Shown here piece by piece: positions 2 to 24,467 of a DNA stretch of 39,025 nucleotides (position 1 is its first letter; each line of letters starts with the position of its first letter). A model generated the notes under the pieces. The model did not search any database and had not been told where the DNA came from. It worked only from the letters and a program-made list of their open reading frames with translations. The position numbers and the translations under genes are program-made. Source of the stretch: a virus; IMG/VR virus record IMGVR_UViG_3300037189_015020, positions 1 to 39,025 of that record; one strand, written 5' to 3'.

Positions 2-1411
2 CAAAAAGATTTAATTGAATTTCAATTAAAATTTACTGATAGTAATATTAAAAATAGTAATAAATCACTTAATTCTTTATTAGTTTACTTTAGAAATATT
101 ACAGATATAGATGTAAAAAATAGTTATATTCATGTTTATCGTGAATCTAGTGTACTTATTAATTTATTGCCTTCAGTTACTAATTTTTCATTTTGTATTA
201 TTAGAAATGGTGTAATTATTTACTATTTTAAAATTAATTCTGAAATATTTTTAAGAGATCAAGTTTTAACATGTCTTGATGAAAATAATCCTTCATCATT
301 GTTAAATTATTTTAGAGATCCTTCTTTTTTCAAAGAAGAAATAGAAAATGGTTCAATTTTTAATAATTGTTGCATTGATATATACTCTGAAAAAAATGAT
401 TTGCCAATATTAAGTTTTGAATTTTCTGTAGAAAATTATGTAAATTATATTCATGAATATAATTTTACTAATAAAATTAATTTTGATTATTTTACTATAG
501 ATATAAATGACCAAAGAATATTTCAAAATTATGTAACTGTTATATCTTATAGAAATTTAATTCAAAATGAAACTATTGTAATTACAAAGACAAATTTGAA
601 TTCTAAATTTGATAAATATGTAAATGTTTCTAGCAATTTTAAAGAACATATAAATAAAATTACTAAACTACAAAATTTAGATAGTGTAAAGTTATTAAAT
701 GTATTGTTTAAAACTGGTAATATAAATGCAAATTCTAGTGAATATCATAAATTAGTTAAATATTTGTCTGAAAACGATAATACTAATAAATATAAAAGTA
801 ATGATTTATTATTTTTATATGAAAAAATAGATAAAAAAAACTTTAATTATGATGGATTAGTTTCAGCATCGTATTTAAATGAAATGTTATTTTATCTATG
901 GTATTTTGGTATTGATATTTTAATAGCTACTTATAAACTTCATGTTACAGCTAGTACATATTTAATTAAAGGTTTATCTTATTTTTATGATTTAAAACTC
1001 ACTAAAGTATCAGATAAAGTATTAGTTAAAAATGGTGATATTATTATTTTCACAAGAGAAAATAAAAAAATACCAAGTTTAAATATTTGTAATCCTTATA
1101 AAGTTATTAATATTTTGAATGTAAACAATGCAACTAGAGTAATATTAGTTGATGAAAAAGGTATAGAGTATTTAACAGAATTAAAAAATTATAAAATAGT
1201 AAATAATGAACAAAGTTTATTTAAAAATACTAAGCAGACATCCTTCTCACCGATCGTTAAGAAATTTGAAAAGAATTCAAACAACAAATCAAACAAAAAT
1301 GACCTCATTTTTGGCGAAAACGGGATCGATTTCAATTTCCCAAGGCCGCAACTTAGACACGTCGATGGACGCTTCAATGAATTACGTGAAGCAGCAGCAA
1401 ACATCCCTTAA
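2..1411 (+). CDS. Hypothetical protein, 5' end outside window
   Basis: The reading frame is open from base 2 with no stop before the TAA at 1409-1411, so the gene starts left of the window; a TTG at 167 is only an internal codon that could be mistaken for a start. At least 469 residues are visible. I recognise no family. The protein is rich in N, I, Y, F and K. Its middle has a hydrophobic helical stretch (around bases 860-990). It is followed by a beta-rich segment with a GDIIIF turn (near 1034), which could be an SH3-like domain. The last 60 residues are polar and then end in a segment rich in R, E and A. The last 113 bases are also open in the frame of the next gene and have about twice the GC of the body of the gene. 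It may belong to the amidoligase operon because it overlaps it, but a role cannot be assigned. Confidence 0.75.
   Translation, partial: QKDLIEFQLKFTDSNIKNSNKSLNSLLVYFRNITDIDVKNSYIHVYRESSVLINLLPSVTNFSFCIIRNGVIIYYFKINSEIFLRDQVLTCLDENNPSSLLNYFRDPSFFKEEIENGSIFNNCCIDIYSEKNDLPILSFEFSVENYVNYIHEYNFTNKINFDYFTIDINDQRIFQNYVTVISYRNLIQNETIVITKTNLNSKFDKYVNVSSNFKEHINKITKLQNLDSVKLLNVLFKTGNINANSSEYHKLVKYLSENDNTNKYKSNDLLFLYEKIDKKNFNYDGLVSASYLNEMLFYLWYFGIDILIATYKLHVTASTYLIKGLSYFYDLKLTKVSDKVLVKNGDIIIFTRENKKIPSLNICNPYKVINILNVNNATRVILVDEKGIEYLTELKNYKIVNNEQSLFKNTKQTSFSPIVKKFEKNSNNKSNKNDLIFGENGIDFNFPRPQLRHVDGRFNELREAAANIP
1299..1411 (+). other. Dual-coding overlap of two genes
   Basis: The end of the first gene (frame ending at 1411) and the N-terminus of the ATP-grasp gene (ATG 1299) are read from the same bases in different frames. 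By hand count GC is about 46% in 1301-1410, against about 20% just upstream. About 22 of 37 third positions in the ATP-grasp frame and about 16 of 36 in the upstream frame are G or C, whereas neighbouring codons nearly always end in A or T. That pattern is expected when neither frame can choose synonymous codons freely. A transferred fragment is the other explanation. Confidence 0.5.
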
Positions 1412-2219
1412 TAATGATACATTATTAATTGTGAGATTTGGTTCAAGTACAACTACTGAACAAATTTTAAATGCTAGAAGAGCAGAATTAAAAAATAAAG
1501 GTAAGTCTAAAGGTAAGTTAAATTACGATAAGATGAACGTTATTGAGCTTAATTCTGTTGAAGGTATTAAGAACTCTTCAGACAAGTTGTTAATGAAACG
1601 TGCTTTTGCAAAAGCTGGTGTTAAAACTGCTACATGGTACACTACTTCTGATGGTAAAACATTTTATCAAAGTGAAGATAAATCTAAAAGTGTAAATATT
1701 AATGATTTGGAATATCCTATTGTTTTAAAAAGTAGAACAGGTTCAAGAGGACGAGGTAATACTTTATGTAAAACAAAAGAAGAATTAGTAGCTGCTATGA
1801 GTGGTAAAACATTATCTAATTATATATTAGAGAAGTATTACGCTTATAACAAAGAATATAGAATTCACGCTAATTTAAACGGGTATTTTTATACTTGTAG
1901 AAAAGTTTTGAAATCTGATACTCCTGAAGATAAAAGATGGTTTAGAAATGATTCTAATTCATCTTGGTTAATTGAGGAAAATGAAGGTTTTGAAAAACCT
2001 AGATCTTTTGACGCAATTGTAAATGATTGTGTTAATGCTCTTAAACATCTAAAGCTAGATTTTGCTGCTTTTGATATTAGAGTGCAATCATCTAAAGATA
2101 AAAAAGGAAGAAATAGAGAATTTGAAGATTACATTCTTATTGAATCTAATTCAGCTCCTTCTTTTGGTGATAGAACAGCACAAGAGTATGAAAAAATGAT
2201 TACATCATTGGTAAAATGA
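1299..2219 (+). CDS. ATP-grasp ligase (RimK-like)
   Basis: Predicted ATP-dependent carboxylate-amine ligase, which activates a carboxylate as acyl phosphate and joins it to an amine. Numbered from the ATG at 1299 (306 aa), the ATP-grasp landmarks are: lysine in the SSDKLLMKRAF helix (near 95-105); YPIVLKSRTGSRGRGNT with the nucleotide-binding lysine near 144 and a glycine-rich loop; the LEKYYAYNKEYRIH strand with Glu near 178; the AAFDIR strand (Asp near 259); and LIESNSAPSF, the E-x-N metal site (282, 284). The start is uncertain. The frame is open from ATG 1206, and ATGs at 1365 and 1377 would also keep the whole ligase fold (IVRFGSS strand). I chose 1299 because the GC rise begins there, which suggests both frames are under selection. 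It shares ATGA with the next gene, so translation is probably coupled. It is the first recognisable enzyme of an amidoligase cassette. Confidence 0.85.
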   Translation: MTSFLAKTGSISISQGRNLDTSMDASMNYVKQQQTSLNNDTLLIVRFGSSTTTEQILNARRAELKNKGKSKGKLNYDKMNVIELNSVEGIKNSSDKLLMKRAFAKAGVKTATWYTTSDGKTFYQSEDKSKSVNINDLEYPIVLKSRTGSRGRGNTLCKTKEELVAAMSGKTLSNYILEKYYAYNKEYRIHANLNGYFYTCRKVLKSDTPEDKRWFRNDSNSSWLIEENEGFEKPRSFDAIVNDCVNALKHLKLDFAAFDIRVQSSKDKKGRNREFEDYILIESNSAPSFGDRTAQEYEKMITSLVK

Positions 2220-3169
2220 CAGAAGTTTTAGTAGAAGAAGAATTAAATGTAGAATTAGATAGTCTAAAAGAAAAATTCGATGAATTAATTGAGTTTAGAA
2301 AAAAACACAAAGATGATATTGTTAAACGTATAAACCAGTATAGTAATAGTTATTTTTGTAATTACCAAATAGAAGGTGATTATGATAATGAAAAAATAAT
2401 GTTTAATTTTCCAAACTATGCATGTTTTGCTTATTGCTTAACATCAACTTATATAGCTAAAAGTAAATATTATCAGCCATTTGCAAAACATTGTAAAAAT
2501 TTCAAAATGGCAATTACTATACCTAAAGTTTATAATTTAAAAAAATATTTACCTGAATCAGTAATTAAGAAATATTCAAATGAAGAATATAATTTATTAC
2601 AATATCAAAACTTAATTGATATATTAACTAACTTAGATTTAACATATCTATTAGAAGAAAATAATGAATATTGGTCATTGTATGTTGACTTTACAGATAT
2701 TAATTTTAATTACATTAAGTTTTGTTTATATATGATTCGTAGTAATTATGAATCATATATGATGAATAATGTAATTATTGAAAATAATAAATTTAAAAGT
2801 AATGACTATTTGAATATATTAAATGATTACAAAAATGAATATCCTAATGTTCATTTATTTTCTTTAATATTAATATTAAGATTTGGATTAGCTGCTTGTT
2901 ATTATGGTCATAGAATAATGGTATATGAAAGTTTTGATTTTACTAATGCTAAAATGAATTCTTTTATTGATAATTTAGTAAATAACAAAGTTGAAGGTAG
3001 TTATTTAGATCAGCATATAGATGACCATTTTAGAAGATCTCCAAATTCAAGATCTGATTATTTTTACAAAACTAGACATGATTATAAATCATCTCAATAT
3101 ATAGTTGATATTGACTTTGACAAAATAGAAAAAAAATTAAAACAATATGAAAATTTATGTAATAGGTAG
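2216..3169 (+). CDS. Hypothetical protein in amidoligase cassette
   Basis: 317 residues, no family recognised by direct reading. The ATG overlaps the stop of the ATP-grasp gene as ATGA, and its TAG stop lies 23 bases inside the next gene, so it is an integral operon member. The N-terminus is an acidic then basic helix (residues 1-45). Around residues 160-185 there is a beta strand (LYVDFTDINF) followed by a helix (KFCLYMIRSN). This resembles, in spacing and hydrophobic pattern, the HVHVGNFNF-helix region of the amidoligase at 6758-8131 and a similar segment in the unknown gene at 4182-5039. It lacks the catalytic residues of that family. It may be a non-catalytic structural partner or decayed paralogue; that is inference only. 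Confidence 0.7.
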   Translation: MTEVLVEEELNVELDSLKEKFDELIEFRKKHKDDIVKRINQYSNSYFCNYQIEGDYDNEKIMFNFPNYACFAYCLTSTYIAKSKYYQPFAKHCKNFKMAITIPKVYNLKKYLPESVIKKYSNEEYNLLQYQNLIDILTNLDLTYLLEENNEYWSLYVDFTDINFNYIKFCLYMIRSNYESYMMNNVIIENNKFKSNDYLNILNDYKNEYPNVHLFSLILILRFGLAACYYGHRIMVYESFDFTNAKMNSFIDNLVNNKVEGSYLDQHIDDHFRRSPNSRSDYFYKTRHDYKSSQYIVDIDFDKIEKKLKQYENLCNR

Positions 3170-3788
3170 CTCAATAGGTTACGCAAGATGGATGTTAGAT
3201 GTATTAAATGCTACACTAACAGATAAAATGGAAGATTCAGACCTAGTTGTACTTACTGGCGGTGCTGATATTGATCCTATGTTTTATGGCGAAAACAAAG
3301 GTAAATATACAAGTACATATGCACAAAGAGATGATTATGAATTTGCTGAAATTAATAAAGCTATCGATTTAAATAAAAAAATAGTTGGTATTTGCAGAGG
3401 TATGCAATGGTTAACTATCATCAATGGTGGTAAACTAATTCAGCATATTAATCATCCTGGTAGTCATAAAATTAAGTTATACAATAATAATGAAGTAATA
3501 GTTAATTCTATGCATCATCAAATGTGTTTTCCTTATGATATAACTACTAAATATAAGATTTTAGGGTTTACAGATAACATATCTAATGTTCACTTAAATG
3601 GTGACAATAAGAATGTTGAATTACCTAATAATTTTGTAGAACCAGAAATTATATTATTTAACGATAATCATTTAGGTTATCAATATCACCCAGAAGCTAT
3701 GAGCATGAACTCAGAAGGTATGCAAGCTACTGTTGATATATTTTTAAAATTTATGAACAATAAATTAGTAGAAGAAGTATATGAATAA
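3147..3788 (+). CDS. Class I glutamine amidotransferase-like hydrolase
   Basis: A 213-residue protein of the peptidase C26 / gamma-glutamyl hydrolase type (related to PuuD and other class I amidotransferases). The full triad is visible: nucleophile Cys83 in the elbow GICRGMQ, and His181 and Glu183 in YQYHPEAM. Other family marks are LTGGADIDPMFYGE (residues 36-49) with the conserved GG, and SMHHQMC near 121-127. Enzymes of this family hydrolyse gamma-glutamyl amide bonds or release ammonia from glutamine. Here it stands alone without a synthetase domain, next to a gamma-glutamylcyclotransferase, which favours cleavage of a gamma-glutamyl product or intermediate. The ATG lies 23 bases inside the preceding gene and the stop overlaps the next start. 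Family certain; substrate unknown. Confidence 0.9.
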   Translation: MKIYVIGSSIGYARWMLDVLNATLTDKMEDSDLVVLTGGADIDPMFYGENKGKYTSTYAQRDDYEFAEINKAIDLNKKIVGICRGMQWLTIINGGKLIQHINHPGSHKIKLYNNNEVIVNSMHHQMCFPYDITTKYKILGFTDNISNVHLNGDNKNVELPNNFVEPEIILFNDNHLGYQYHPEAMSMNSEGMQATVDIFLKFMNNKLVEEVYE

Positions 3789-4182
3789 ACATTATGTATT
3801 TGTCTATGGTACATTGCTTTCAGATTTACCAAATAATTATTTACTTAAAACAAGTAAATTAATTGGAGAAGCAAAAACTGTAGAAAAATTCAAATTACAA
3901 CATGATTGGATTCCTTTTCTTAACACTGAAAAAAAGGAACAATACATTAAAGGTGAAGTTTACGAAGTTAGTGATAACGTATTAGAAAGTTTAGATAGAT
4001 TAGAAGGTTACAGTGATGATAGACCTAAAAATTTAAACATGTATAATAGAGAAATTATCGAAGTTAAATGTGATAATCAAACACTTGAATGTTTTGTTTA
4101 TACAAATAATAATTTTGGTAAAGAAAACGTTCCTAATGGAGATTATAAAAAATTATATTTAAATAAGTTAAAATATCAATAA
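3781..4182 (+). CDS. Gamma-glutamylcyclotransferase-like protein
   Basis: 133 residues, the usual size of a single-domain GGCT / AIG2-like protein. The signature VYGTLL (residues 8-13) forms the phosphate-like binding loop, and Glu75 in DRLEGY is the expected catalytic base. The family cyclises gamma-glutamyl groups, releasing 5-oxoproline and a free amine; GGACT relatives do this on gamma-glutamyl-amine cross-links. It starts 8 bases before the end of the amidotransferase-like gene and ends by sharing one base with the next ATG (TAATG). In this cassette it probably removes or edits gamma-glutamyl groups formed by the ligases. The exact substrate is unknown. Confidence 0.88.
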   Translation: MNKHYVFVYGTLLSDLPNNYLLKTSKLIGEAKTVEKFKLQHDWIPFLNTEKKEQYIKGEVYEVSDNVLESLDRLEGYSDDRPKNLNMYNREIIEVKCDNQTLECFVYTNNNFGKENVPNGDYKKLYLNKLKYQ

Positions 4183-5039
4183 TGAAAGTAAAAAATTATA
4201 AAAGTTTAAGTTATACTATTTCTGATTACGTACTAACTTTTTATAACCAAAACAATAGTGTTTATGAAACTAAAGTTTTAGATCAATGTCATTCTTCAGT
4301 AAGATCAACTAGTTATTCAAAAATAAAAGTTGATTTTCGTATTGAATGTGAACAAGATGAATTAGAAAGAATAGAATCATATATTCAATACATTAATGAT
4401 TTAGGATTTCCTATATCTTATAAAATAATTAATCATGATGAAGAAACACATGGTATTGAAATAACTATGGAATATAAAGATTATACATCATCTAAATCAT
4501 TATATTTTGCATATGTATTAATTAGAAATATTGCTAAACTTAATGTTTTTGTAGAAGTATTAGTTAATATTCTTGAAAACTATAATAAGTTTAGATTTAA
4601 ATCTTTACCTTTGTTTGCTACTATAAATTATTTAATTTATTTTAATAATCTTCAATATAAAAATAATTTTGGTGGTAATAGTATAGCTAGTTCAGGTTAT
4701 ATGAATCCTTCAGTAGTAAGACCTACTACATCTTATTTAAGTGATAAAAATACAGAAATAATTAATAAAATATCTAATTATTCTAGTAGAGGTAGGCTAT
4801 TATGTATTGTTTTACCAATTAAATTAGAAGATTTAGTTAAATTGTATAATGCAGATACAAAAGTATTAGATGCTTTATTTATCAGAGAAGGTGAAATAGT
4901 AGGTTATGAAAATAGTATGAATAGTAATACTTTTTCATCAGTAGATGAATCAAAACATAAAGTTGTATTACAAGCAATTAAATCAACTAAATTAAGTGAT
5001 ATTTTTAACTATATAAAAGAATATAACAAAGTATATTAA
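4182..5039 (+). CDS. Hypothetical protein in amidoligase cassette
   Basis: 285 residues, no family recognised. The start is fixed by a TAATG junction with the cyclotransferase gene, and only one base separates its stop from the next ATG, so it belongs to the operon. Around residues 85-120 a strand (IEITMEYKDY) and a helix (LYFAYVLIRN) parallel the strand-helix unit in the unknown protein at 2216-3169 and, more loosely, the HVHV strand and following helix of the amidoligase at 6758-8131. The second half contains a serine- and glycine-rich stretch (near residues 160-195). No catalytic motif, signal peptide or convincing membrane segment is seen. A structural partner of the ligases is a reasonable guess, no more. 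Confidence 0.7.
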   Translation: MKVKNYKSLSYTISDYVLTFYNQNNSVYETKVLDQCHSSVRSTSYSKIKVDFRIECEQDELERIESYIQYINDLGFPISYKIINHDEETHGIEITMEYKDYTSSKSLYFAYVLIRNIAKLNVFVEVLVNILENYNKFRFKSLPLFATINYLIYFNNLQYKNNFGGNSIASSGYMNPSVVRPTTSYLSDKNTEIINKISNYSSRGRLLCIVLPIKLEDLVKLYNADTKVLDALFIREGEIVGYENSMNSNTFSSVDESKHKVVLQAIKSTKLSDIFNYIKEYNKVY

Positions 5040-5040
5040 T

Positions 5041-6771
5041 ATGTGTGGATTATACGGTTACTCCAAAGGAGATAAAACATTATTTAATAGTGATAAATTC
5101 ACTATACTCAGTATGCAAAATATGACTAGGGGAGAAGACTCTACTGGTTTGTATTTTGAAAATCAAAAACAATATAAATTGTTTAAAGATGCTGTTAGAG
5201 CAGATATATTTATAGCTGCTGAATATCAAGACATTAAACATTTTGTAAAATCAGCTAATGTAACAATAGCAATAGGTCATAATAGAGCTAAAACAGTAGG
5301 TGCAGCAACATTAGAAAATGCGCATCCATTTATTGTTAAAGGTGACAGAACAATAGTTTTAGCACATAATGGTACATTAAAAAATCATGAATTTGTAAAA
5401 GGTAAATATGATAAAATAAAAACTGTAAAATTAGATGTTGATTCTCAGTTATTTGTAAATTATTTTGCTAATTATAATGACTTTGATATTTTAAAACGTT
5501 ATGATGGTGCAGCTGCATTACTTTGGAAGAATGTAGATACAAATGATTTATATGCTTATAGAGATTCTGAAAGACCATTGCATTATGGTTATATAAATGA
5601 TAATATTTATATATCATCAGAAGCTTCTGCTTTACAAGTTATAGGTGCTACAAGAGTTACTCAATTTGAAGAAAGAAAAGTATATACTATTAGCGGTGGT
5701 ATAATTACTAATATTTCTGAAAAAATAGAGAAAGATTTGTTTGTTATTCCAACAACTACAAGAACAACAACTACTTATACTGCTAAGAAGAATACTTCAG
5801 TTTATCCTGCTTATACAAATAAACAGTTAAAAGCTGCGTGGAATAAATTTAAAAAGAATGAGTTAAAATATACAGTATCTTTAAATACTTATGTTAAATC
5901 TTCAATTTCTAAAAAAGAAAATGACAACATTTTAATATTTAAATGTCAAGACTCATTATCTGAAATGATGATTGATATAGATAATTTCTATGATGTAGAT
6001 TTTTCTAAATTTGTTACTGAAAAACAAAAAACTGATAAGTTTTTATTTATTAAAACAGTAATTAAGAATAAATCTAACACTAAAGATCTGGATATTGTAT
6101 TTGAGAATCCTATAAATTTTAAGGTTGGAGATTTAGGCACTATTGAGGAGGATAGTGATAACCCAAATCTCCCTATACGATTTCGCCCAGATGGAGATGG
6201 AGAAAGAAGAGACGGATGCATTTATTGTAAAGGTAATCCTAGTATTCATTTTTGTAATGCTAGTAGCTGCAAGTATAGCTTACAATTTACCTTAGACAAT
6301 GATGACGAAGATAAAATTACTCAAATCAATGTAATTACTTATAGTAACACAAATACAGCTAACTGTACAAATATGGATTGTGAAAATGGATATGATTATG
6401 TTAGAGAAACAATTTGTCCAGAATGTTTAGGTGTATCTAATAATATACCAAGCATTAAACAAGAAGATACACATGAAGAAAATGAAATAGGATCTAAGTA
6501 TGAAGAATTTTTAGACTTTGTTGATAATATATTTAACAATTATAAAAGTGAACTTAAATCATCAACTTATGAAAGTTACGAAGAATTTAAAATGCATACA
6601 GAAGATCTTACTTTAAGCTTTAAAGTTGTTGTAAATGATATAGTTGAATTATGTGATACACTTACTTCTTCTGAGTATAAAATATTAACAGTTGAAGAAA
6701 TGTGTAATATTGATGATTACAGTGAATATTTTCAAAAACAATTAAAATATGTAACAAATGAAGATAACTAA
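5041..6771 (+). CDS. Class II glutamine amidotransferase with Zn-ribbon tail
   Basis: 576 residues. The N-terminal 220 or so are an Ntn-hydrolase amidotransferase. MCG places the nucleophile at Cys2 after Met removal. The other marks are RGEDSTG (30-36), GHNRAKTVG with Arg82, the oxyanion-hole AHNGTL (109-112), DVDSQ (132-136), and DGAAALLW followed by a YAYRDSERPL strand. These enzymes release ammonia from glutamine. No synthetase domain follows. Instead there is a threonine-rich linker, a middle region, an SH3-like-looking strand pair (FKVGDLGTIEED, from about 360), and two groups of paired cysteines (393/396 with 405/410; 442/447 with 459/462) suggesting zinc ribbons. The last 100 residues are acidic and helical. 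It lies 14 bases into the amidoligase gene, implying coupled expression; ammonia or amine supply to that ligase is the simplest role. Confidence 0.9.
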   Translation: MCGLYGYSKGDKTLFNSDKFTILSMQNMTRGEDSTGLYFENQKQYKLFKDAVRADIFIAAEYQDIKHFVKSANVTIAIGHNRAKTVGAATLENAHPFIVKGDRTIVLAHNGTLKNHEFVKGKYDKIKTVKLDVDSQLFVNYFANYNDFDILKRYDGAAALLWKNVDTNDLYAYRDSERPLHYGYINDNIYISSEASALQVIGATRVTQFEERKVYTISGGIITNISEKIEKDLFVIPTTTRTTTTYTAKKNTSVYPAYTNKQLKAAWNKFKKNELKYTVSLNTYVKSSISKKENDNILIFKCQDSLSEMMIDIDNFYDVDFSKFVTEKQKTDKFLFIKTVIKNKSNTKDLDIVFENPINFKVGDLGTIEEDSDNPNLPIRFRPDGDGERRDGCIYCKGNPSIHFCNASSCKYSLQFTLDNDDEDKITQINVITYSNTNTANCTNMDCENGYDYVRETICPECLGVSNNIPSIKQEDTHEENEIGSKYEEFLDFVDNIFNNYKSELKSSTYESYEEFKMHTEDLTLSFKVVVNDIVELCDTLTSSEYKILTVEEMCNIDDYSEYFQKQLKYVTNEDN

Positions 6772-8131
6772 TTTTTATTTGTTGAATAATGATTTTCATA
6801 AAAAACTAAAAAATACAGGATTTGTTTATTCTAGGATATACTATATGGATGAATCAGGTAAAAAAGTTTTAATATCTGATATAAATAAAGATGATGTATT
6901 TAGTAAAAAAGAAATAAACATAGAACATTTTAAAGATATTAAACATATCAATGAATTACTATGTGCATTTTCAACTAAAGATAATTGTACATATTTATTT
7001 AAATCTTTAGAAGAAGCTAATAAAAATAACTTCTTTAGAAATACAGCAGGATTAGTGACAGATAATGTTTCTTCTAATAGTAGTAAAGTAGCTATATTTA
7101 ATGAATATTTTCCAAGAGATATATTAAAAAGCTTATATAGTCCTGCTGAATTAGGTAGTAAAAGTCCAACTTTTATTGTATCAGAAGGTTTAAGATTTAC
7201 ATTTGGTGTAGAAATAGAAACAAATATTGGTTACTTACCAGAATATGTTTATTTCAAAAATAAATTAAATCTTGAATGTATTAGAGATGGATCATTACGA
7301 AACGAATTAGGTGTAGAAGAAGGTGGAGAATATGTAACAGGTGTATTAAATGGCGATTTAGGATTTTTAAATCTTAAAAAATCTTTAGCAATGATTAGTT
7401 CTCATTGTAAAATAGATAAAAAATGTGGAATACACGTTCATGTTGGTAATTTTAATTTTTCTAAACAATTTATAGTATTAGCGTATATTCTAGCACTTAA
7501 AATTGAAGATGAAATATTTATAACATTACCACCTTCAAGAAGGAATAATGAAACTTGCGGAAGACTAAAACAACAACCTTATTTAGATGTAATTAAAAAA
7601 TATAATTTAGAATATGGTTCTGAATTATGTTATAATGATTTATTTGAGGATGTAGGTAATGGTAGAAAGTTAACTGAAAAATTAAATAAAAAATATCCAC
7701 ATCCAGGTGGTAGATATACTGATAGATACAGTAGAGGTATATCTCCAGCCAATTTATATAGATATAAATGGTTAAATTTTGTGCCATCTTTATTTAATAT
7801 GAAAGGAGACCAAGAAAACCCTATACATACATTAGAATTTAGATGTCATCCTGCAAGTTTAAATTATGATAAAATTCAAAATTGGATTTTATTCTGTTTT
7901 GCTTTTTGCAATTATGTAGAAAGTAATTACAAAAATATTATAGAAGATGATAATATTACCATTGAAAAAATCTTAAATTATTCATATCCAAAAAAGGGAA
8001 AAGAGTTATCTGATTACTTTAAAGATAGAATAGAAAGATTTAAAAACGATGGTGATACAAAAGAACTTTTAGAATATAAACAAAAAACAGTTAATAAGTT
8101 TTCTAACATAAAAGAAGCTTTAAAAATATAA
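6758..8131 (+). CDS. Amidoligase (glutamine synthetase-fold COOH-NH2 ligase)
   Basis: 457 residues. The C-terminal two thirds match the putative amidoligase family (Amidoligase_2 type): FGVEIETN with metal-binding Glu152 and Glu154; RDGSL (Asp177); GGEYVTG (Glu191); GIHVHVG with His226 and His228; an arginine in RYKWLNF (335); and TLEFRCHP (Glu360, Arg362). These correspond to the ATP and metal sites of the glutamine synthetase fold, so the protein should form an amide bond between a carboxyl and an amine using ATP. The first 140 residues are a separate region I do not recognise. It sits between two class II amidotransferases and downstream of an ATP-grasp ligase, the grouping typical of predicted peptide- or surface-modifying systems. 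All the key residues appear present, so it is probably active. The acceptor and donor are unknown. Confidence 0.9.
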   Translation: MKITNFYLLNNDFHKKLKNTGFVYSRIYYMDESGKKVLISDINKDDVFSKKEINIEHFKDIKHINELLCAFSTKDNCTYLFKSLEEANKNNFFRNTAGLVTDNVSSNSSKVAIFNEYFPRDILKSLYSPAELGSKSPTFIVSEGLRFTFGVEIETNIGYLPEYVYFKNKLNLECIRDGSLRNELGVEEGGEYVTGVLNGDLGFLNLKKSLAMISSHCKIDKKCGIHVHVGNFNFSKQFIVLAYILALKIEDEIFITLPPSRRNNETCGRLKQQPYLDVIKKYNLEYGSELCYNDLFEDVGNGRKLTEKLNKKYPHPGGRYTDRYSRGISPANLYRYKWLNFVPSLFNMKGDQENPIHTLEFRCHPASLNYDKIQNWILFCFAFCNYVESNYKNIIEDDNITIEKILNYSYPKKGKELSDYFKDRIERFKNDGDTKELLEYKQKTVNKFSNIKEALKI

Positions 8132-8133
8132 CA

Positions 8134-8829
8134 ATGTGCTTAATTGCAATTAAAGACGAAGGTGTTCCTTTAACAAAGGAATTTTATAAATCATTAGCTA
8201 GGAGTTTTCTTCTTAGAAATTATCATGGTTCAGGTTTTGCTATTTTGAAAAAAGATTCTAAAACTATATATATGAGAAAATCTATATATAATTTAAGAGA
8301 ATTAATTCATAGTATTAAAGCACAAAACATTGGACTAGACGACATATTAGTTGTTCATTTGAGACGAAGTAGTGGTTCACATCAATCTTCAATGAACACA
8401 CAACCAATGGTTATGTCTAATAAGTTTATTCAATTAAACAAATTAGAAGGATTTACAAAAGAAGATGTATTATTTCATAATGGTTATATAACTAGTTACG
8501 ACAAGTTTTTACCATATTATAGTGATACATATGCTTTCGTTCATCATTTTGCGAATTCTAAAAATTTTACTAAGTTTGCTAAATCATTACAAAATAAAAA
8601 TAAATTAGGTGAATTAACTAAATTTGTTTTTCATAGTAATAAAGTAGTTGTACTATCTCCAGAATCAAAATTATTAATAATTAATGAAGGTAGTTTTATC
8701 AAAAAAAATGGTTATTTATATAGTAACGATAGTTTTGATATCCCTAAGAAAATAATTGAATTTGATGATAGTGATTACGATAGATTTGCTAATGAGCGTA
8801 GATTTTTTAGAAGAGGTTTTTCAGATTAA
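8134..8829 (+). CDS. Second class II glutamine amidotransferase
   Basis: 231 residues, a stand-alone Ntn-hydrolase of the YafJ/GAT-II type. Cys2 of MCLIAI is the nucleophile. GSGFAI (32-37), VVHLRRSS with Arg77/78, LFHNGYI (oxyanion Asn116, Gly117) and YSDTYAF (Asp131) follow in family order. It starts two bases after the amidoligase stop and ends immediately before the next ATG. It is not a recent copy of the amidotransferase at 5041-6771: the sequences are clearly different and this one has no zinc-ribbon tail. Two such enzymes in one operon suggest either different acyl donors or that one acts as a peptidase or deacylase, which this fold also supports. The C-terminus is basic and aromatic. 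Confidence 0.88.
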   Translation: MCLIAIKDEGVPLTKEFYKSLARSFLLRNYHGSGFAILKKDSKTIYMRKSIYNLRELIHSIKAQNIGLDDILVVHLRRSSGSHQSSMNTQPMVMSNKFIQLNKLEGFTKEDVLFHNGYITSYDKFLPYYSDTYAFVHHFANSKNFTKFAKSLQNKNKLGELTKFVFHSNKVVVLSPESKLLIINEGSFIKKNGYLYSNDSFDIPKKIIEFDDSDYDRFANERRFFRRGFSD

Positions 8830-9333
8830 ATGAAAATAACATTAGATTTAGATTTATTAAAAGAAATAAATTTATCACCTAGTGAATACTGTGCATTAAT
8901 TGTAATACAAAAAGGAAATTATTTAGATTATCCTATTGGTGATAATATATTAAAATCATTAAATAATAAAGGATTTATTGACTCTAATAATAAACTAATA
9001 AGTGATATTGTAACTAAGAAACCAGATCCTATAGAAGAATGGGTTAATTTATGGCCAAAACATGTAATTAACAACAGCTATAGGGTTTCTGGTTCTGTTC
9101 CCGATTGTAAAACAAGAATGAATACTTTTAGTAAAAGATTTCCTATGTTCACATGGGATATAATTATGGAAGCAACTAAAAGATATTTAAAAAGACAAGA
9201 GGCATTAGGTTGGAAAATGACCAAGAAAAATTATAAATTTATTTATGATAGAGATGGTAGCATGCTTGCAGAAGAATGTGAAGCATTAGTTAGAGGTGAA
9301 GAGGATAATCAAACAAATAATATTTATTTATAA
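8830..9333 (+). CDS. Putative replisome adaptor or helicase loader
   Basis: 167 residues. The first 60 look like a winged-helix unit (helix, then LSPSEYCALIVIQ and a short turn). The last 100 hold a helical domain with a conserved look: EEWVNLWP, then a VSGSVPDCKTRM turn, FSKRFPMFTWDIIMEATKRY, and a WKMTKKNYKFIY strand. Similar C-terminal domains occur in phage proteins encoded next to replicative helicases. It lies directly upstream of the DnaB-type helicase with no spacer, which is the main reason for proposing a loading or adaptor role. No ATP-binding motif is present, so it is not a DnaC-type ATPase. A transcription regulator is an alternative. Confidence 0.55.
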   Translation: MKITLDLDLLKEINLSPSEYCALIVIQKGNYLDYPIGDNILKSLNNKGFIDSNNKLISDIVTKKPDPIEEWVNLWPKHVINNSYRVSGSVPDCKTRMNTFSKRFPMFTWDIIMEATKRYLKRQEALGWKMTKKNYKFIYDRDGSMLAEECEALVRGEEDNQTNNIYL

Positions 9334-10428
9334 TTGAATTACTTTGATTTATTTCAAAATGAGATTGATAAGGGTATAAAAAATGAATCCATTTATATAC
9401 CTTTATCTCAATCGAAATTGAATTCCAATATCATTTTTGGTAAATCTATGTATTTTTTAATCGGTGGTTTGCCCGGGTCGGGTAAAACTGCCATTGTTGA
9501 TTCTCAATTTTTATTAGAACCTTATTTATATTGGTGGAGAAATAAAGATAAATTGAATATTAATCCTTATTGGATTTATAGATCAATGGAAAGAAATCGT
9601 GTTTATAAAATAGCCAAATGGACTGCATATTTAATGTACGTAGATCACAATATCCTTATTGATGTTCCTACAATTATGGGTTGGCCAAATAAACTTAGAA
9701 ATCTATCTGAAGAAGAAATTAGTATAATTAAATCATATAAACCTTTTTTCGATGAATTATTTGAAAGAGTTTTAATATATGATGGTTCTCAAAATCCAAC
9801 AGGTATTTATAAAGATGCTGAACGTTTCATGTTAACAAAAGGTGAAATAGTTCAATTAGATCAATACAACAAAGTTTTTAAACCTAATAATAGTAATTTA
9901 TTTGTTTGTCATATAACAGATCACGTTGGTAAAATATCCAGTGAGAATAATGCACGATCAGATAAAGAAATATTAGATTTACATTCTGACTACATGGGTA
10001 AATTAAGAGATTTTTATGGTGTTACTTGTATAGATATATGTCAATTAAATAGAAATATTGAAAACACATATAGAGCAGTTAACACTGATATTGATGTACA
10101 ACCTCAAGATTTTAAAGGTAGTTCAGATATGTATGAAAACTGTGACGTTGCTATTGGTTTATTGAATCCTTATAAGATTCAAGCATATGATTATGGTGGA
10201 TATAAAATTAAAAATTTTGTAAACAAGAAAAACAATAATAGATTTAGATCTTTAAAAATTATTAAAAATTCATACGGTAACGATGATTTTGTTATTGGTT
10301 TTCACTTTATTGGTGAAAATGGATTAATGGCAGAAATACCAAATTCAATTGAAATAAATTATGATAGTTTTAAAGATGGTAAATATGTTCTTGATTTTTT
10401 AAAAAATAGAGAGAATTATGGAAGATGA
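9334..10428 (+). CDS. DnaB-type replicative helicase (RecA-fold ATPase)
   Basis: 364 residues, superfamily 4 helicase core. Walker A is GGLPGSGKT (44-52). A Walker B-like strand is LFVCHITDHVG. A DnaB-style segment reads CQLNRNIEN followed by FKGSSDMYENCDVAIGL, equivalent to the SQLSR...LxxSG/IEqdAD motifs of DnaB. The N-terminal primase-binding domain of cellular DnaB is absent, as in many phage helicases; only about 40 residues precede the ATPase domain. The start codon is TTG (9334), immediately after the upstream TAA; no better ATG exists before Walker A. The 3' end overlaps the next gene by 11 bases. It should unwind DNA at the phage fork together with the primase at 12094-13083. Confidence 0.8.
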   Translation: MNYFDLFQNEIDKGIKNESIYIPLSQSKLNSNIIFGKSMYFLIGGLPGSGKTAIVDSQFLLEPYLYWWRNKDKLNINPYWIYRSMERNRVYKIAKWTAYLMYVDHNILIDVPTIMGWPNKLRNLSEEEISIIKSYKPFFDELFERVLIYDGSQNPTGIYKDAERFMLTKGEIVQLDQYNKVFKPNNSNLFVCHITDHVGKISSENNARSDKEILDLHSDYMGKLRDFYGVTCIDICQLNRNIENTYRAVNTDIDVQPQDFKGSSDMYENCDVAIGLLNPYKIQAYDYGGYKIKNFVNKKNNNRFRSLKIIKNSYGNDDFVIGFHFIGENGLMAEIPNSIEINYDSFKDGKYVLDFLKNRENYGR

Positions 10429-18668: not shown

Positions 18669-21600
18669 TTATTTTGTAGGATCTAATGGAGAAAACAATT
18701 GCAATGCATTGTTTTTTAAATAATCATTTTTATATTCTGGGTTACGCATTTCAACTACATTTTTAAGAATAGGAATCATTTTTATTAATCCTTTTTCCCA
18801 ATTTTCGTAACCTTCGTACATACCTTTTTCAACTTGTTTACCATCAAATACAGAAAATAAGAAATCTTGTATCTTAATTATACCATCAGTAGATGCTGAA
18901 GGTGATTTTAATAAAGATATAATTTCAGTTGGATTAATAAAAGAAGAATGCTCTAACAATACTCTAGTAGATGTATATGCAAACATGTTTACAGTCCAAT
19001 CATCTTCATCATCAGCTGCTGCTTGTAATAATCCCCATATAACTGCTATACCTGTTAATATAGCTAAATCATACATAGTTCTTTGTACACCTAATTTTTC
19101 TTCTTTAGATAAGTTATTCCATATTGCCGATTTAAATTTAATCATTAAAGTTTTTTCAGCAATCATTTCTTTTATTATACTATTCATCATTATAAATGAT
19201 GCTCTATAATATCCTATATCTTCTTTATTTGTAGTATAATCAAATTGTTTATTTTTAAAACGTCTATCTATTCCAACAATTAACCAGTTTCTATGTACTA
19301 ATAGTGTTTGAGCTAATACATTAGAAAATGCTTTACCTTTATCTACATCAGTTATTCTACCATCTACAAGATTGGATAAATAATCAATTTTAAGTTGTAG
19401 TTTAATAATATCATTTTCATTAACATCTAACTTAGTAGTTAGTTTACCATTTTCAATAATAAAGTTTTCGTAGTAATTAGGGAGTTTATTAAACTCTTCT
19501 AATGTTAAACCATGTGCTTCTATTTTATCTATTGTAACTAATCTCCCATTATGTATTTTATTAGACATCATTAATGCTATAGCTGTTTCAGCTTTAATTG
19601 AATATTCACCTATTTCAAAAGGTAACATAGCACTAGAATCATTTGCTAAATATCTAATAACTCTATTTTTATCTACGTTTCTAAAAAACGTATTCATATC
19701 AAATACATTATTATGTAATAGTATTCGATGCATTTTATTTTGAGGATTACTAGATTTAGCATCTAAGTAAACACTTGGTAAATTCATTTTAAGTTCCCAT
19801 TTAGCTTTACCTAATGTTTGTTTACTAACATTCAAATGAACTAATGCTTCTGTTGCAATATCTATTTTAGCTTTTATAGTGTTGGATATAGCAGATATAA
19901 AATTACCACCTAAGTTAACGTTACGTATATAACCATTAAACTTTTGTACAATTTTAGATACATCAACGTTTTTATCAAATATTTGTCTTATTATTTTTTC
20001 TGTTTTAATAGAATAAATATTTCTATCAATTAGATTTTTAATAGTTTGATAATCATTTGATTCAGCACCTTTTTTACCTTTACCAACTGCATATCTTTTT
20101 TTCTCAAATCTTCTAAGTATAAGGTTAGCATCATATGATACTTTAGACATTACTTCATAGTTTTTACTCATTTCAGTAAATGCAATACTTATGTAATTTA
20201 AGTCTTTAGATGCATTAGGTATTTTTTGGAAAAAGTTTATAGGTACATATTTAATTTCGTTACCAAAATAATCAGTTCTAATATCACCATATTCTTGAAT
20301 ATCTTCTGGTTTAATTCTAACTCCATCTTTTACAATATCTAAAAATCCTTTACCTTGTGACCAAGCATCTAAGAAGTTTTGAGATATTTGTGGTAACTTA
20401 TATAAATTAGTATTTATACCAGTGTAATAATCATATCTGTTATATTTTTTTGGTAATCTTGCTAAGTCTTCTTTTCTTATATCTAATAGAAGGTTATAAT
20501 AATTTTTTACATCTTCAGAAAGAGAATTAAATTTAGGATTTAACCATTTACTATTTAACTTTAATGGAAATAAATCAGGTGATGCTTCTATAATTTGATC
20601 TTTTTGTCTAAAGAAATTATCTGTTAATTTTGAACCATCAGCAAATGTATAATTCTCTTTTGCAAAGTTTATCTTCCAAGAGAAATATGGAGCTTTTTCA
20701 TTTACACCATTATTATCATCTTCTAATGAATTAACAAATTCTCTCACTGATTTGTAATCTTTTATATTACGTCCTAGTTCTGTAGCATATTGAGTTAAAA
20801 ACTTTAATTCTTCTTTTCTTTCATGGGATTTAAATTCATTAAGTTTATATTCTTGAATTAAATATAATTCACCATCTACGTCTTCTATAAGTTCATCAGT
20901 ATTAAAATTACCTTTAATCTTATTATATGCTTCTAGTATTTCTAAACCTTTTTTATTTTTGTGATTTTCAACAACTTTTAAAGACTTAGCTACAATATTA
21001 GCAAGTGTACGTATTACATTATTAGATGAATATCTAGCGCTTCCTAAAAATAATCTAAACCAAGATGAATCAACAGTAGTTTTATTTTCATACATATTAG
21101 TTAACATATCATCAACTGTATATGGTACATCATATTCTTCTACTGCTTCAGTTAATACGTTACGCATTACTATTTTTTCCCATTTTTCATAATAACCTTG
21201 TAAAGTCATTATTTCAGAACGTTGCTCTTTTAACTTAGCTATTTCTTTATCAAATTTAATTGTATCTAAATCTTCAAGATAAGATATAACGTCATTTAAT
21301 GCAGAAGAATAATTATGTGTAAATATATAAATATCATCGAGCATTTCTGCAGTAATAGCAAAATTATCTCTGTTTAATTTAAATCTATTAATTAATGAAT
21401 CATTAGCTTCAGCAATATCTGTTGTAAAACCTAATAAATCTTTATCTATTTGTTTAGATAGTTCTTTTAATACAGTATTTGGATCATTGTTAGCTATTGC
21501 ACTTTTAATAACATCTAATCGTTTTGTTTCAACCATACCAGTTTCATCAACTGAGCTAGATGAATTGATAGTTTTTAATATATTTCTATTTTTACTTTGT

Positions 21601-24467
21601 ATTTTTTGTCTTCTGTTATCTACAACATTATAAATAGTTTCTAATAATTCTTTTTCATTATTAGGTATAGATGCTAACTTTAAATCATCAGTAAGATTGT
21701 TAGTGTTACCTTTCATTGTATTATTCAAAATAGAATATGCTATTTTCTTATTTATAGCCTCTATTTCTTGCTTATAATACTTATTTGATGTAATCGTATT
21801 AATTACACGTAGAAAGTTTCTATATATAGCGTTAAATGTTGATTTAAGTACATTGTCTGTTGAATTAAAATTAGATTTAATAGCTTTAGCTAATTCTTTA
21901 CCTAATACTTCTTTAAGTAATTTATTTCTATCACCCATGTATAGCTCATAATAACTTTCACCTAAAGCATCTTTTAATGATTCAGATGATGGTATTAATC
22001 GCATTAATCTTCTTACATGAGGATTATTATCTCCAAGTAATTCAATAGCAAAGTGAGCTACTTCTTCAGTAAATACATCTTCAGAACTATTAGAATCTAA
22101 TTCAATTAATTTAGATAGTATATTAGCTATACCATCTACTTTCATACCGTTTAATTTAAGATTATCAATAACTTTAACATCAATACCATATTTTTCACAA
22201 AATTCTTTTAACATTGAAGTTAATTCATTATCTGAATATCTTTCTGTACTAGGTAAAGCTTCATCAAATAATCTTTTTTGACCATTTGCTTTATCTTCTA
22301 TTTCCCAAGAGTATAAAGTAGATTGTCCTAATTGAGTGAATTTAACAAAATAAGAAGTATTGTTTAATCTATTATATTTTTCAACATTCTTTTTTACATT
22401 AATAGTTTGTTGATTAGACAAATGTTTACTATTTAACCCAAATTCTTTTCTTAAAGATGGTTGAGCTAATGTATTATTTGTGTATTCTTCAAATCTTTTA
22501 TAATTTTCTAAATTATTATTTATAATTTGTGTAGCTAAACTAAATGCCTGATTATAAAAAGAATCTGATTTTTTAACTTTTATAATAGATAATATTTTAT
22601 CAAATATATTTTCAAATAGATTTTTATAATTTCTAACTTTATTTAAAGGTGCTACTTCTTGTAATGCTTTTATAAACTTAGCATCTGTAAACAAACCTAC
22701 TATAAATTCATCAATATCAGTAAGTGCATAATAATCATCTTTATTTAAATTAGATAATGCATGATTATATAATCTTCTAAAAGCAATAGCTTCATTTGAA
22801 TTTTCTTTTACAGTATAATATGTTATATAATGTAATGCTTCATGTAACAAAGTATTTTCAAATGAATGTTTAAAATTAGCAAATTCAGCTATACTAATAT
22901 CTAATGTATTAGGATTAAATATACCTGCTGCATTAATAACATCACCTTGTGAATTACTAACATCAATAGCACTATCTGGTATTAAATTAACAACAGTATC
23001 TTCAGGTAAGTATTTTAATATATTATCTGCTAACTCACTTAATTTATAATCAGATTTTGATATTTTATTTAATACATCTTTTAAATTTGCTTGATTTTGA
23101 CCATTAAAATATTTTTCTTTCAGATCACTTGATTGATTATTAGATTGTTCAGTACTTTGTTTATCAAGTAATACTGGTACATCATTAACTTCATTTAAAA
23201 TAACCTCATTCCAAGTATTACCATATTCGTCAGTAATCTTATTTACAGTATAATTCTTTTTAAGAATATTAGTTAAAGTATTTTCATAAAAATTATAAAT
23301 AGGTTTTAAAGCACCAAAACCTTCTTTTTCAACTCTTTCTAGTTCTTGTTTAAGTTGGTTTATTTCTCTTTGTATTCCAATATTAAAATCTTTTTCATCA
23401 CCAATATTAAATGGGTCATTTTTGTCAAATTTTTCATTTTCAAGTTCTTTAATTCTATTTTCTTTTTCTTTTTTAAATTCTTCTAAAGTAGTATGACCTT
23501 CAACTTTACTAGCTGTATTACCACTAGGAAATAATACTTTTTCATAACCTTTGTTAATAGTATCCTGTATAATAGATTTAACGAAGAATGTTACCCAGTT
23601 ATTGTCTTTATTTAAAAGTTGTAAAAATTGATTTTTAATTTTTATTTCAATCGGATTATACATTATATCCGTAGATAATAAAAAATTTTCATTTCTACTT
23701 TTTTGAAATAAATCAGATTGTACTTCTAGTATTCTACGGGTTTTAGTGTTTTTTGTAAATTTAGCAATATCTTCTTCTGGCATATTTAGTAATTGAGCAG
23801 ATGTAAGACCTAAAGAAACACCATCTAGTTTATCATCACTTCTAAACCAACCAATACCATTATCTGTAGCAAATTGAGCATGACCTTTAATACCAGGTGT
23901 AATTAATGGTGTAGCTATTTCTACTTCTATATAATTAGTGCCGCCTGGAACTGTTAGATTAGAATAAAAACTTGTAGATTTTCCTTTTATTTCATTAACA
24001 GCTTGTTCGCTAGTTTCTCCTGTAATTATATCAACCATTTCAGGTGACCATTCGTAGTTTTTATTTCCTTTAGCAATATTAATTTCAACAGGATAGTTAT
24101 ATGTTGAAGCAAATTCTATCATTAAATCATTAAATGATTGTCCATCATATAATGATTCTAATAACAATACTTGTTCTTTAGGTAAATTATATTTTGTATC
24201 TAATAATTTTTTAAAGAAATCTTTTTTGTTTTTATATTGTGTAAATAATTTATTAAATTCATTAAATCTATTAGATATGATATTTAATAATTTAAAATTA
24301 TAATCTACACTATTATTTGATAATGTATTATTCTTTAACTTATCAATTTGTTCATCTGATAAAAAATCATAATTGTTTAATGTAAAATAGTAATTAGCCT
24401 TTGTTTCACCAAAGGCCGTTACCATTTTCTTATATCTACTATCGTTTTTATTTGGACATATTAACAT
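18669..24467 (-). CDS. Giant polyvalent virion protein with zincin domain
   Basis: 1932 residues. Visible parts: residues 140-330, a barrel-type domain of phage polyvalent proteins (GGTNYIEVEI at 175-184, GHAQF at 195-199, EVQSD at 248-252, then GYEKVLFPSG); a zincin metalloprotease unit with HEALH (542-546) and a likely third ligand Glu587 in DIDEFIVG; a second, decayed zincin-like stretch EEVAHFAIELLGD (near 805); long helical regions; and a late hydrophobic helix (LAILTGIAVIWGLLQAA) near residue 1830. Large multi-domain proteins like this in crAss-like phages are packaged as cargo or ejection proteins. Here the protease may act on virion proteins or host targets. The ATG shares a base with the ferritin stop (TAATG), so the two are co-translated. 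It is the last gene of the minus-strand block and ends 21 bases from the terminator hairpin. Confidence 0.85.
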   Translation of the reverse strand: MLICPNKNDSRYKKMVTAFGETKANYYFTLNNYDFLSDEQIDKLKNNTLSNNSVDYNFKLLNIISNRFNEFNKLFTQYKNKKDFFKKLLDTKYNLPKEQVLLLESLYDGQSFNDLMIEFASTYNYPVEINIAKGNKNYEWSPEMVDIITGETSEQAVNEIKGKSTSFYSNLTVPGGTNYIEVEIATPLITPGIKGHAQFATDNGIGWFRSDDKLDGVSLGLTSAQLLNMPEEDIAKFTKNTKTRRILEVQSDLFQKSRNENFLLSTDIMYNPIEIKIKNQFLQLLNKDNNWVTFFVKSIIQDTINKGYEKVLFPSGNTASKVEGHTTLEEFKKEKENRIKELENEKFDKNDPFNIGDEKDFNIGIQREINQLKQELERVEKEGFGALKPIYNFYENTLTNILKKNYTVNKITDEYGNTWNEVILNEVNDVPVLLDKQSTEQSNNQSSDLKEKYFNGQNQANLKDVLNKISKSDYKLSELADNILKYLPEDTVVNLIPDSAIDVSNSQGDVINAAGIFNPNTLDISIAEFANFKHSFENTLLHEALHYITYYTVKENSNEAIAFRRLYNHALSNLNKDDYYALTDIDEFIVGLFTDAKFIKALQEVAPLNKVRNYKNLFENIFDKILSIIKVKKSDSFYNQAFSLATQIINNNLENYKRFEEYTNNTLAQPSLRKEFGLNSKHLSNQQTINVKKNVEKYNRLNNTSYFVKFTQLGQSTLYSWEIEDKANGQKRLFDEALPSTERYSDNELTSMLKEFCEKYGIDVKVIDNLKLNGMKVDGIANILSKLIELDSNSSEDVFTEEVAHFAIELLGDNNPHVRRLMRLIPSSESLKDALGESYYELYMGDRNKLLKEVLGKELAKAIKSNFNSTDNVLKSTFNAIYRNFLRVINTITSNKYYKQEIEAINKKIAYSILNNTMKGNTNNLTDDLKLASIPNNEKELLETIYNVVDNRRQKIQSKNRNILKTINSSSSVDETGMVETKRLDVIKSAIANNDPNTVLKELSKQIDKDLLGFTTDIAEANDSLINRFKLNRDNFAITAEMLDDIYIFTHNYSSALNDVISYLEDLDTIKFDKEIAKLKEQRSEIMTLQGYYEKWEKIVMRNVLTEAVEEYDVPYTVDDMLTNMYENKTTVDSSWFRLFLGSARYSSNNVIRTLANIVAKSLKVVENHKNKKGLEILEAYNKIKGNFNTDELIEDVDGELYLIQEYKLNEFKSHERKEELKFLTQYATELGRNIKDYKSVREFVNSLEDDNNGVNEKAPYFSWKINFAKENYTFADGSKLTDNFFRQKDQIIEASPDLFPLKLNSKWLNPKFNSLSEDVKNYYNLLLDIRKEDLARLPKKYNRYDYYTGINTNLYKLPQISQNFLDAWSQGKGFLDIVKDGVRIKPEDIQEYGDIRTDYFGNEIKYVPINFFQKIPNASKDLNYISIAFTEMSKNYEVMSKVSYDANLILRRFEKKRYAVGKGKKGAESNDYQTIKNLIDRNIYSIKTEKIIRQIFDKNVDVSKIVQKFNGYIRNVNLGGNFISAISNTIKAKIDIATEALVHLNVSKQTLGKAKWELKMNLPSVYLDAKSSNPQNKMHRILLHNNVFDMNTFFRNVDKNRVIRYLANDSSAMLPFEIGEYSIKAETAIALMMSNKIHNGRLVTIDKIEAHGLTLEEFNKLPNYYENFIIENGKLTTKLDVNENDIIKLQLKIDYLSNLVDGRITDVDKGKAFSNVLAQTLLVHRNWLIVGIDRRFKNKQFDYTTNKEDIGYYRASFIMMNSIIKEMIAEKTLMIKFKSAIWNNLSKEEKLGVQRTMYDLAILTGIAVIWGLLQAAADDEDDWTVNMFAYTSTRVLLEHSSFINPTEIISLLKSPSASTDGIIKIQDFLFSVFDGKQVEKGMYEGYENWEKGLIKMIPILKNVVEMRNPEYKNDYLKNNALQLFSPLDPTK

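What the first reader, a model, noticed from the sequence alone, without database searches (positions are those of the whole stretch)
1299..8829. Complete amidoligase cassette in a crAss-like phage
Eight consecutive, mostly overlapping genes encode an ATP-grasp ligase, class I amidotransferase-like hydrolase, gamma-glutamylcyclotransferase, class II amidotransferase with zinc ribbons, GS-fold amidoligase, second class II amidotransferase and two unknowns. Active-site residues appear intact in all six enzymes. Two bond-forming, two ammonia/acyl-transfer and two gamma-glutamyl-removing activities in one operon suggest a full make-and-edit pathway for an amide- or gamma-glutamyl-linked product. 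Related groupings were predicted in phages such as phiEco32 and in bacteria (Iyer, Aravind and colleagues), but no product is known to me. Possible targets: host cell wall or capsule, a phage protein, a small defence-blocking metabolite, or less likely phage DNA bases.
Basis: partly seen in the sequence, partly recalled or inferred. Interest (0 to 1): 0.85.

Follow-up and report, generated by a model that had tools for sequence, protein, structure and literature searches.

The report
Phage amide-ligase cassette, cut short
A crAss-like virus of bacteria carries a known type of gene cassette that makes and breaks amide and gamma-glutamyl bonds; the piece seen here is cut off at the contig edge and lacks one expected ligase, and its two "unknown" genes belong to a fast-evolving protein family found in other such cassettes, whose purpose is still unknown.

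Summary
The eight genes are real, intact, and correctly assigned for the six enzymes, in a crAss-like phage fragment. The cassette is not new: it is the phiEco32/RIO-1/LUZ24-type set, already published as a "peptidoglycan modification cassette" and present in crAss-like phages phi14:2 and cr108_1. It is not complete here. The PF14395 COOH-NH2 ligase, found in 69 of 72 flank-complete relatives, is absent from all six frames; in the closest relatives it lies two genes upstream of the ATP-grasp gene, which would be off this contig's left end. The ATP-grasp gene starts at 1206, not 1299. New here: both "unknowns" match a profile of a divergent cassette-associated family built without them, with a nearly invariant Cys and Arg and no solved-structure match. 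An early Cys motif recurs in cassette-flanking unknowns of unrelated phages (8/9, then 6/17 in a second set; background 0.9%). Class II amidotransferase and Amidoligase_2 are immediate neighbours in 131 of 135 cases and co-vary (Mantel r 0.85), so probably form one glutamine-dependent enzyme. The target is unknown: envelope amidation is the favoured guess, while unexplained restriction resistance of phiEco32 relatives keeps a DNA or anti-restriction role open.

The parts
2..1411 (+). ORF0, open at the left contig edge (first in-contig start TTG 167); unknown, possibly with an SH3-like C-terminal segment; sits where sister cassettes have the one gene between the COOH-NH2 ligase and ATP-grasp
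   Evidence: Position matches L147, L150, L153, L155, L156 and others; sequence link is weak (hhalign prob 5%)
1206..2219 (+). ATP-grasp ligase (RimK-like); true start 1206
   Evidence: Pfam/PHROG hits; SRHPSHxxLR N-terminus conserved; metal-binding E313/N315 and K175 conserved in alignment A1
1206..1411 (+). overlap of ORF0 and ATP-grasp, holding most of a window-specific insertion in the ATP-grasp
   Evidence: third-position GC 0.39/0.41 in the two frames versus 0.07-0.13 nearby; insertion seen only in the window row of A4
2216..3169 (+). unknown 1, member of the cassette-associated Cys/Arg family (Cys70, Arg175)
   Evidence: family profile built without it, E 0.011, E 7e-4 in an earlier round; AF2 pLDDT 60.8
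3147..3788 (+). Peptidase C26-type class I GATase, PuuD-like hydrolase
   Evidence: PF07722 9e-21; closest solved structures Lin1909 and PuuD; triad conserved
3781..4182 (+). gamma-glutamyl cyclotransferase (GGACT/AIG2-like)
   Evidence: PF06094 4e-22; Y9, E75 conserved
4182..5039 (+). unknown 2, member of the cassette-associated Cys/Arg family (Cys36, Arg115)
   Evidence: family profile built without it, E 1.5e-5; AF2 pLDDT 64.7, best viral structure hits are crAss-like proteins
5041..6771 (+). class II glutamine amidotransferase (Ntn, Cys2)
   Evidence: PF13522 2.5e-15; catalytic residues conserved
6758..8131 (+). Amidoligase_2 (GS-fold ligase)
   Evidence: PF12224 6e-9, phrog_2443 1e-17; conserved GxExE, HxH, ExR positions
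8134..8829 (+). second, short class II GATase
   Evidence: falls in GAT2 profile; Cys2 and oxyanion residues conserved in 48 relatives
8830..10428 (+). context: small conserved protein (8830-9333) and DnaB-like helicase (9334-10428) that follow the cassette in sister phages too
18669..24467 (-). context: crAss-like RNA-polymerase-type protein
   Evidence: matches in 85 phage records

Best explanation
A contig-truncated member of the phiEco32/RIO-1-type phage amide-ligation cassette in a crAss-like phage. Shown by sequence: an ATP-grasp ligase, an Amidoligase_2 with a class II GATase as fixed neighbour, a C26 hydrolase, a GGCT, a second short GATase and two members of a divergent Cys/Arg family; a third ligase (COOH-NH2 ligase) is expected just upstream of the contig edge. 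Inferred: the class II GATase releases ammonia from glutamine for the Amidoligase_2, which amidates a carboxylate; the ATP-grasp and COOH-NH2 ligases add amino-acid or gamma-glutamyl units; C26 and GGCT strip unwanted gamma-glutamyl groups. Inferred and weak: the genes act in the replication phase and the target is a carboxylate-bearing envelope precursor such as a peptidoglycan stem peptide, so that the infected cell resists superinfection or early lysis.
For: Family hits and conserved active sites. Same gene set in phi14:2, cr108_1, Lbo-JY46, RIO-1, phiEco32, LUZ24. GAT2 directly upstream of Amidoligase_2 in 131/135 and Mantel r 0.85 support one glutamine-dependent enzyme. COOH-NH2 ligase in 69/72 cassettes, two genes upstream of ATP-grasp in the closest relatives. 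Published proposal of peptidoglycan modification and superinfection exclusion (PMC5498523; PMC10580990). Cassette sits beside primase, helicase or DNA polymerase and encloses phi32_gp79, a middle-gene product (PMC8948821).
Against: No biochemical or genetic evidence for any product was found. No envelope-directed gene (flippase, transferase, Mur ligase) was identified in the cassette. The envelope target is a literature guess. The ATP-grasp gene is co-inherited less tightly than the others (Mantel 0.34-0.36).
Confidence: 0.5

Rival explanations
1. The cassette modifies phage DNA, or makes an anti-restriction conjugate, adding amino-acid, amide or gamma-glutamyl groups during replication.
For: Cassette lies beside primase/helicase/DNA polymerase in many lineages. 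Gordonclarkvirinae are reported as remarkably resistant to restriction-modification without a known pathway (PMC11990801), and phiEco32-like phages of that group carry the cassette.
Against: DNA of phage tf, which has amidoligase, GATase and COOH-NH2 ligase genes, was digested and cloned with RsaI, HpaI, EcoRV and SmaI and cut with HaeIII (PMC3517423). The BASEL authors propose dCTP deaminase and nucleotidyltransferase instead. No DNA-binding or nucleotide-handling domain was recognised in the cassette.
Confidence: 0.12
2. The cassette makes or recycles a small gamma-glutamyl or amide metabolite (nitrogen salvage, or a defence-blocking molecule).
For: A comparable gene set was credited with nitrogen metabolism in Phage-ZRK32 (PMC10945688). 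PRPP synthetase and nicotinate/nicotinamide phosphoribosyltransferase genes lie beside the cassette in Lbo-JY46, LAh_9 and APT65.
Against: In the passages read, the Phage-ZRK32 growth effect was not tied to these genes by deletion. Three ATP-dependent ligases are more than salvage needs. The NAD-type neighbours are absent from most cassettes seen.
Confidence: 0.2
3. The cassette modifies a protein (host or phage), RimK-like, by adding amino acids or amides to carboxyl groups; the Cys/Arg proteins would be the acceptors or adaptors.
For: ATP-grasp is RimK-like; the Cys/Arg family is fast evolving and often present in two copies, as expected of a substrate or adaptor.
Against: No acceptor identified; role of the Cys and Arg untested.
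Confidence: 0.18

Closest known systems
Seven-gene 'peptidoglycan modification cassette' of RIO-1-like podoviruses (PSA-HP1, RIO-1) and phiEco32 (PMC5498523, citing Hardies 2013 and Iyer)
   Same: ATP-grasp, Amidoligase_2, class II GATase and GGCT in one cluster beside replication genes
   Different: COOH-NH2 ligase not on the contig; C26 hydrolase and a second short class II GATase are present; a crAss-like rather than podoviral genome
Cassette of crAss-like phages phi14:2 and cr108_1 (Steigviridae, Asinivirinae)
   Same: ATP-grasp, GAT2 and Amidoligase_2 orthologues, 38-46% (ATP-grasp) and 27-28% (Amidoligase_2) identity; cr108_1 also has C26 and two paralogous unknowns
   Different: Those have the COOH-NH2 ligase and a downstream uracil-DNA glycosylase; no second GAT2
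Environmental sister cassettes with a second GAT2 (L055, L031, L045, L147, L148, L155 and others)
   Same: GAT2 - Amidoligase_2 - GAT2 followed by the 8830-type gene and helicase
   Different: COOH-NH2 ligase two genes upstream of ATP-grasp; gene order around ATP-grasp differs
MurT/GatD peptidoglycan amidation (Staphylococcus aureus)
   Same: Works-like analogy only: a ligase paired with a glutamine amidotransferase
   Different: Different folds: GS-fold ligase with class II GATase here, Mur-ligase type with class I GatD there (own knowledge; PMC3267633 abstract)

Membership tests
phiEco32/RIO-1-type phage amidoligase cassette | ATP-grasp ligase and Amidoligase_2 in one cluster | tested here: met
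phiEco32/RIO-1-type phage amidoligase cassette | class II GATase next to Amidoligase_2 | tested here: met
   5041-6771 overlaps 6758-8131; 131/135 relatives
phiEco32/RIO-1-type phage amidoligase cassette | COOH-NH2 ligase (PF14395) | tested here: inconclusive
   absent in six frames, but its expected place is beyond the contig edge
phiEco32/RIO-1-type phage amidoligase cassette | gamma-glutamyl cyclotransferase | tested here: met
   PF06094; 56/72 relatives have one
phiEco32/RIO-1-type phage amidoligase cassette | placed among replication genes | tested here: met
   DnaB-like helicase, Sak4-like and primase genes downstream
phiEco32/RIO-1-type phage amidoligase cassette | modifies peptidoglycan | not testable with these tools
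   proposal only
Crassvirales (crAss-like) | giant RNA-polymerase-type protein | tested here: met
Crassvirales (crAss-like) | capsid, portal and terminase markers | not tested
   window is a 39-kb fragment
Cassette-associated Cys/Arg family (defined here) | profile match without self-training | tested here: met
   unknown 2 E 1.5e-5; unknown 1 E 0.011, marginal
Cassette-associated Cys/Arg family (defined here) | nearly invariant Cys and Arg | tested here: met
   Cys36/Arg115 and Cys70/Arg175
PuuD (gamma-Glu-GABA hydrolase) | equivalog-level score | tested here: not met
   33 bits against a cut-off of 266; C26 superfamily member only

The most novel reading that the evidence does not exclude
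The fast-evolving Cys/Arg proteins are an unrecognised core component (transferase or acceptor) of phage amidoligase cassettes in both crAss-like phages and podoviruses, and the cassette makes a new amide or gamma-glutamyl conjugate during replication that protects the phage, for instance accounting for the unexplained restriction resistance of phiEco32 relatives.
Probability: 0.1. Interest if true: 0.85.

Novelty: new member of a known kind. Interest (0 to 1): 0.45.

Why it matters
These cassettes are widespread (305 named phage records hold the COOH-NH2 ligase; about 100 distinct cassettes were found in environmental contigs here), yet no product is known. Showing that this crAss-like cassette is the same machine as the phiEco32 one, that GAT2 and Amidoligase_2 are a fixed pair, and that the "unknowns" belong to a shared family makes the question testable in culturable coliphages.

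Tried and rejected
Unknown 2 as a divergent COOH-NH2 ligase: rejected (hhalign probability 0.1). COOH-NH2 ligase elsewhere in the window: none in six frames. Single-protein scans for close relatives: none found. Structure search of both unknowns in the PDB: nothing significant. Anti-phage defence models: no credible match. RNA families: none. The GC-rich ATP-grasp insert as a copied repeat: no source found. Genome-collection scan for the ATP-grasp: one locus in an archaeal MAG contig, possibly a co-binned phage, not followed. Profile link of the Cys/Arg family to podoviral unknowns: not significant; only the motif test supports it. PA11 gp9 as a family member: no motif.

Full report
Observation. 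The eight ORFs lie at 1206-8829 on the + strand, overlapping or nearly so. Pfam, PHROGs and NCBIfam assign ATP-grasp, Peptidase C26/class I GATase, GGCT, class II GATase and Amidoligase_2. The second class II GATase (8134-8829) has no convincing direct library hit but joins the GAT2 profile; its relatives keep Cys2, Arg77, Asn116-Gly117 and Asp131. Active-site residues of the C26 and GAT2 enzymes are conserved too. The ATP-grasp gene must start at 1206: the SRHPSHxxLR N-terminus, shared with phi14:2 and 17 environmental relatives, lies upstream of Met 1299.

Phage identity. ORF 18669-24467 matches RNA-polymerase-type proteins in 85 phage records; those listed are crAss-like. The same protein is detectable in 8 of 26 contigs that carry the cassette or its GAT2-Amidoligase_2 pair. 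Capsid and terminase genes were not tested; the record is a 39-kb fragment.

The cassette is known. phi14:2, cr108_1 and Lbo-JY46 carry it, as do RIO-1, CVT22, LAh_9, phiEco32, LUZ24 and PA11 in whole or large part. It is published as a seven-gene peptidoglycan modification cassette thought to prevent superinfection (PMC5498523; PMC10580990). UFV-P2 has the set (PMC3890496), and a comparable set was credited with nitrogen metabolism in Phage-ZRK32 (PMC10945688). The Iyer 2009 paper itself was not held.

Neighbourhoods. Scans of IMG/VR gave more than 200 loci. Selecting ATP-grasp plus Amidoligase_2 within 9 kb gave 100 distinct cassettes; 72 had enough flank: GAT2 72, COOH-NH2 ligase 69, C26 57, GGCT 56, uracil-DNA glycosylase 29, second GAT2 26. 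ATP-grasp and Amidoligase_2 are present by selection. GAT2 is directly upstream of Amidoligase_2 in 131 of 135 cases with a median gap of 2 bp; 28 cases have the pair without ATP-grasp or COOH-NH2 ligase nearby, some of them on short contigs. Distance matrices correlate at 0.85 for this pair and 0.34-0.71 for the others, all above 300 permutations. Returned lists were capped at 80 loci per scan, ORFs were called by a simple script, and deduplication was by identical ATP-grasp sequence, so counts are approximate.

The missing ligase. The COOH-NH2 ligase (PF14395) is absent from all six frames of the window. In the closest relatives by Amidoligase_2 (L055, L148, L045, L031, L155, L147) it is exactly two genes upstream of ATP-grasp. 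In the window the intervening position is held by ORF0, which runs off base 1. The sequence link between ORF0 and the intervening genes is weak (hhalign 5%), so position is the main argument; gene order is variable enough in this group that loss is not excluded.

The two unknowns. Both were singletons by ordinary search. A family profile grown from other in-cassette unknowns, without the window, found unknown 2 (E 1.5e-5) and unknown 1 (E 0.011) over nearly full length, with large composition corrections; a few ORFs outside cassettes also match it. A Cys (91%) and an Arg (94%) are nearly invariant. AlphaFold2 models are of modest confidence (pLDDT 64.7 and 60.8) but share the order strand-strand-Cys-strand-helix-strand-strand-three helices; both used alignments that contained each other, so this agreement is not independent. 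Against viral models the best two hits of unknown 2 are a crAss-like virus protein (E 4.5e-3, prob 0.99) and a 300-aa cr108_1 protein of the same length as that phage's cassette unknown (E 0.07, prob 0.85); none reaches E 1e-3, and there is no PDB match. Podoviral cassettes also carry 250-500-aa unknowns. Profile similarity to them is not significant, but a C[FYH][GSAR] motif at residues 10-40 occurs in 8 of 9, against 12 of 1302 background ORFs. That motif was noticed partly in those same proteins, so nine further phages were fetched: 6 of 17 flanking unknowns had it (binomial P 7e-9). Those six come from three phages (two Cronobacter, three Aeromonas, one Vibrio protein), two of which are from the phiEco32-like end of the range, so they are not independent and the P value is optimistic. 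Homology across phage types is suggestive, not shown.

Mechanism. Shown: gene content, intact sites, fixed GAT2-Amidoligase_2 pairing. Inferred: glutamine-dependent amidation by that pair, further amino-acid or gamma-glutamyl ligation by ATP-grasp and COOH-NH2 ligase, trimming by C26 and GGCT. Timing: phi32_gp79, described as a middle-gene product (PMC8948821), is encoded within the phiEco32 cassette, and cassettes sit beside primase, helicase or DNA polymerase. Target: unresolved. For the envelope there is only the published proposal. For DNA or anti-restriction there is the restriction resistance of Gordonclarkvirinae without known cause (PMC11990801); against it, tf DNA is cut by common enzymes (PMC3517423).

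Overlap. ORF0 and ATP-grasp share 206 nt. Third-position GC in the overlap is 0.39/0.41 in the two frames against 0.07-0.13 nearby, and the ATP-grasp carries a window-specific insertion there. Dual coding or a recent insertion both fit; no source copy was found.

Verdict. A real and mostly well-read cassette of a known kind, incomplete as seen, with one new lead: an uncatalogued accessory family.

Noticed in passing
window 1206-1411: ORF0 and the ATP-grasp gene overlap by 206 nt; GC rises to 43-50% in part of it and third-position GC is high in both frames, with a window-specific insertion in the ATP-grasp: overprinting or a recent insertion.
   Followed up: partly
L004 1549-5758; L228 7696-10834; L236 1-2234: Ribose-phosphate pyrophosphokinase and nicotinate/nicotinamide phosphoribosyltransferase genes lie beside the cassette in Lbo-JY46, LAh_9 and APT65, resembling NAD+ reconstitution modules.
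   Followed up: no
L229 6931-16311 (phiEco32): The sigma70-inhibitor gene phi32_79 lies inside the cassette between GGCT and ATP-grasp.
   Followed up: partly
L090-L095, L186-L212: Many contigs have only the GAT2-Amidoligase_2 pair, without the other ligases nearby: a possible minimal unit.
   Followed up: partly
L230 1562-2890; L240 4129-5520: Longer cassette-flanking unknowns (442-463 aa) have an ACH-type Cys motif near residue 224-228 after an extra N-terminal region, possibly a fused SH3-like domain.
   Followed up: no
window 24957-37190 (-): A 4077-residue ORF next to the RNA-polymerase-type ORF; not examined.
   Followed up: no
L224: A cassette-type ATP-grasp gene on a contig binned with an uncultured archaeon MAG; probably a co-binned phage contig.
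   Followed up: no
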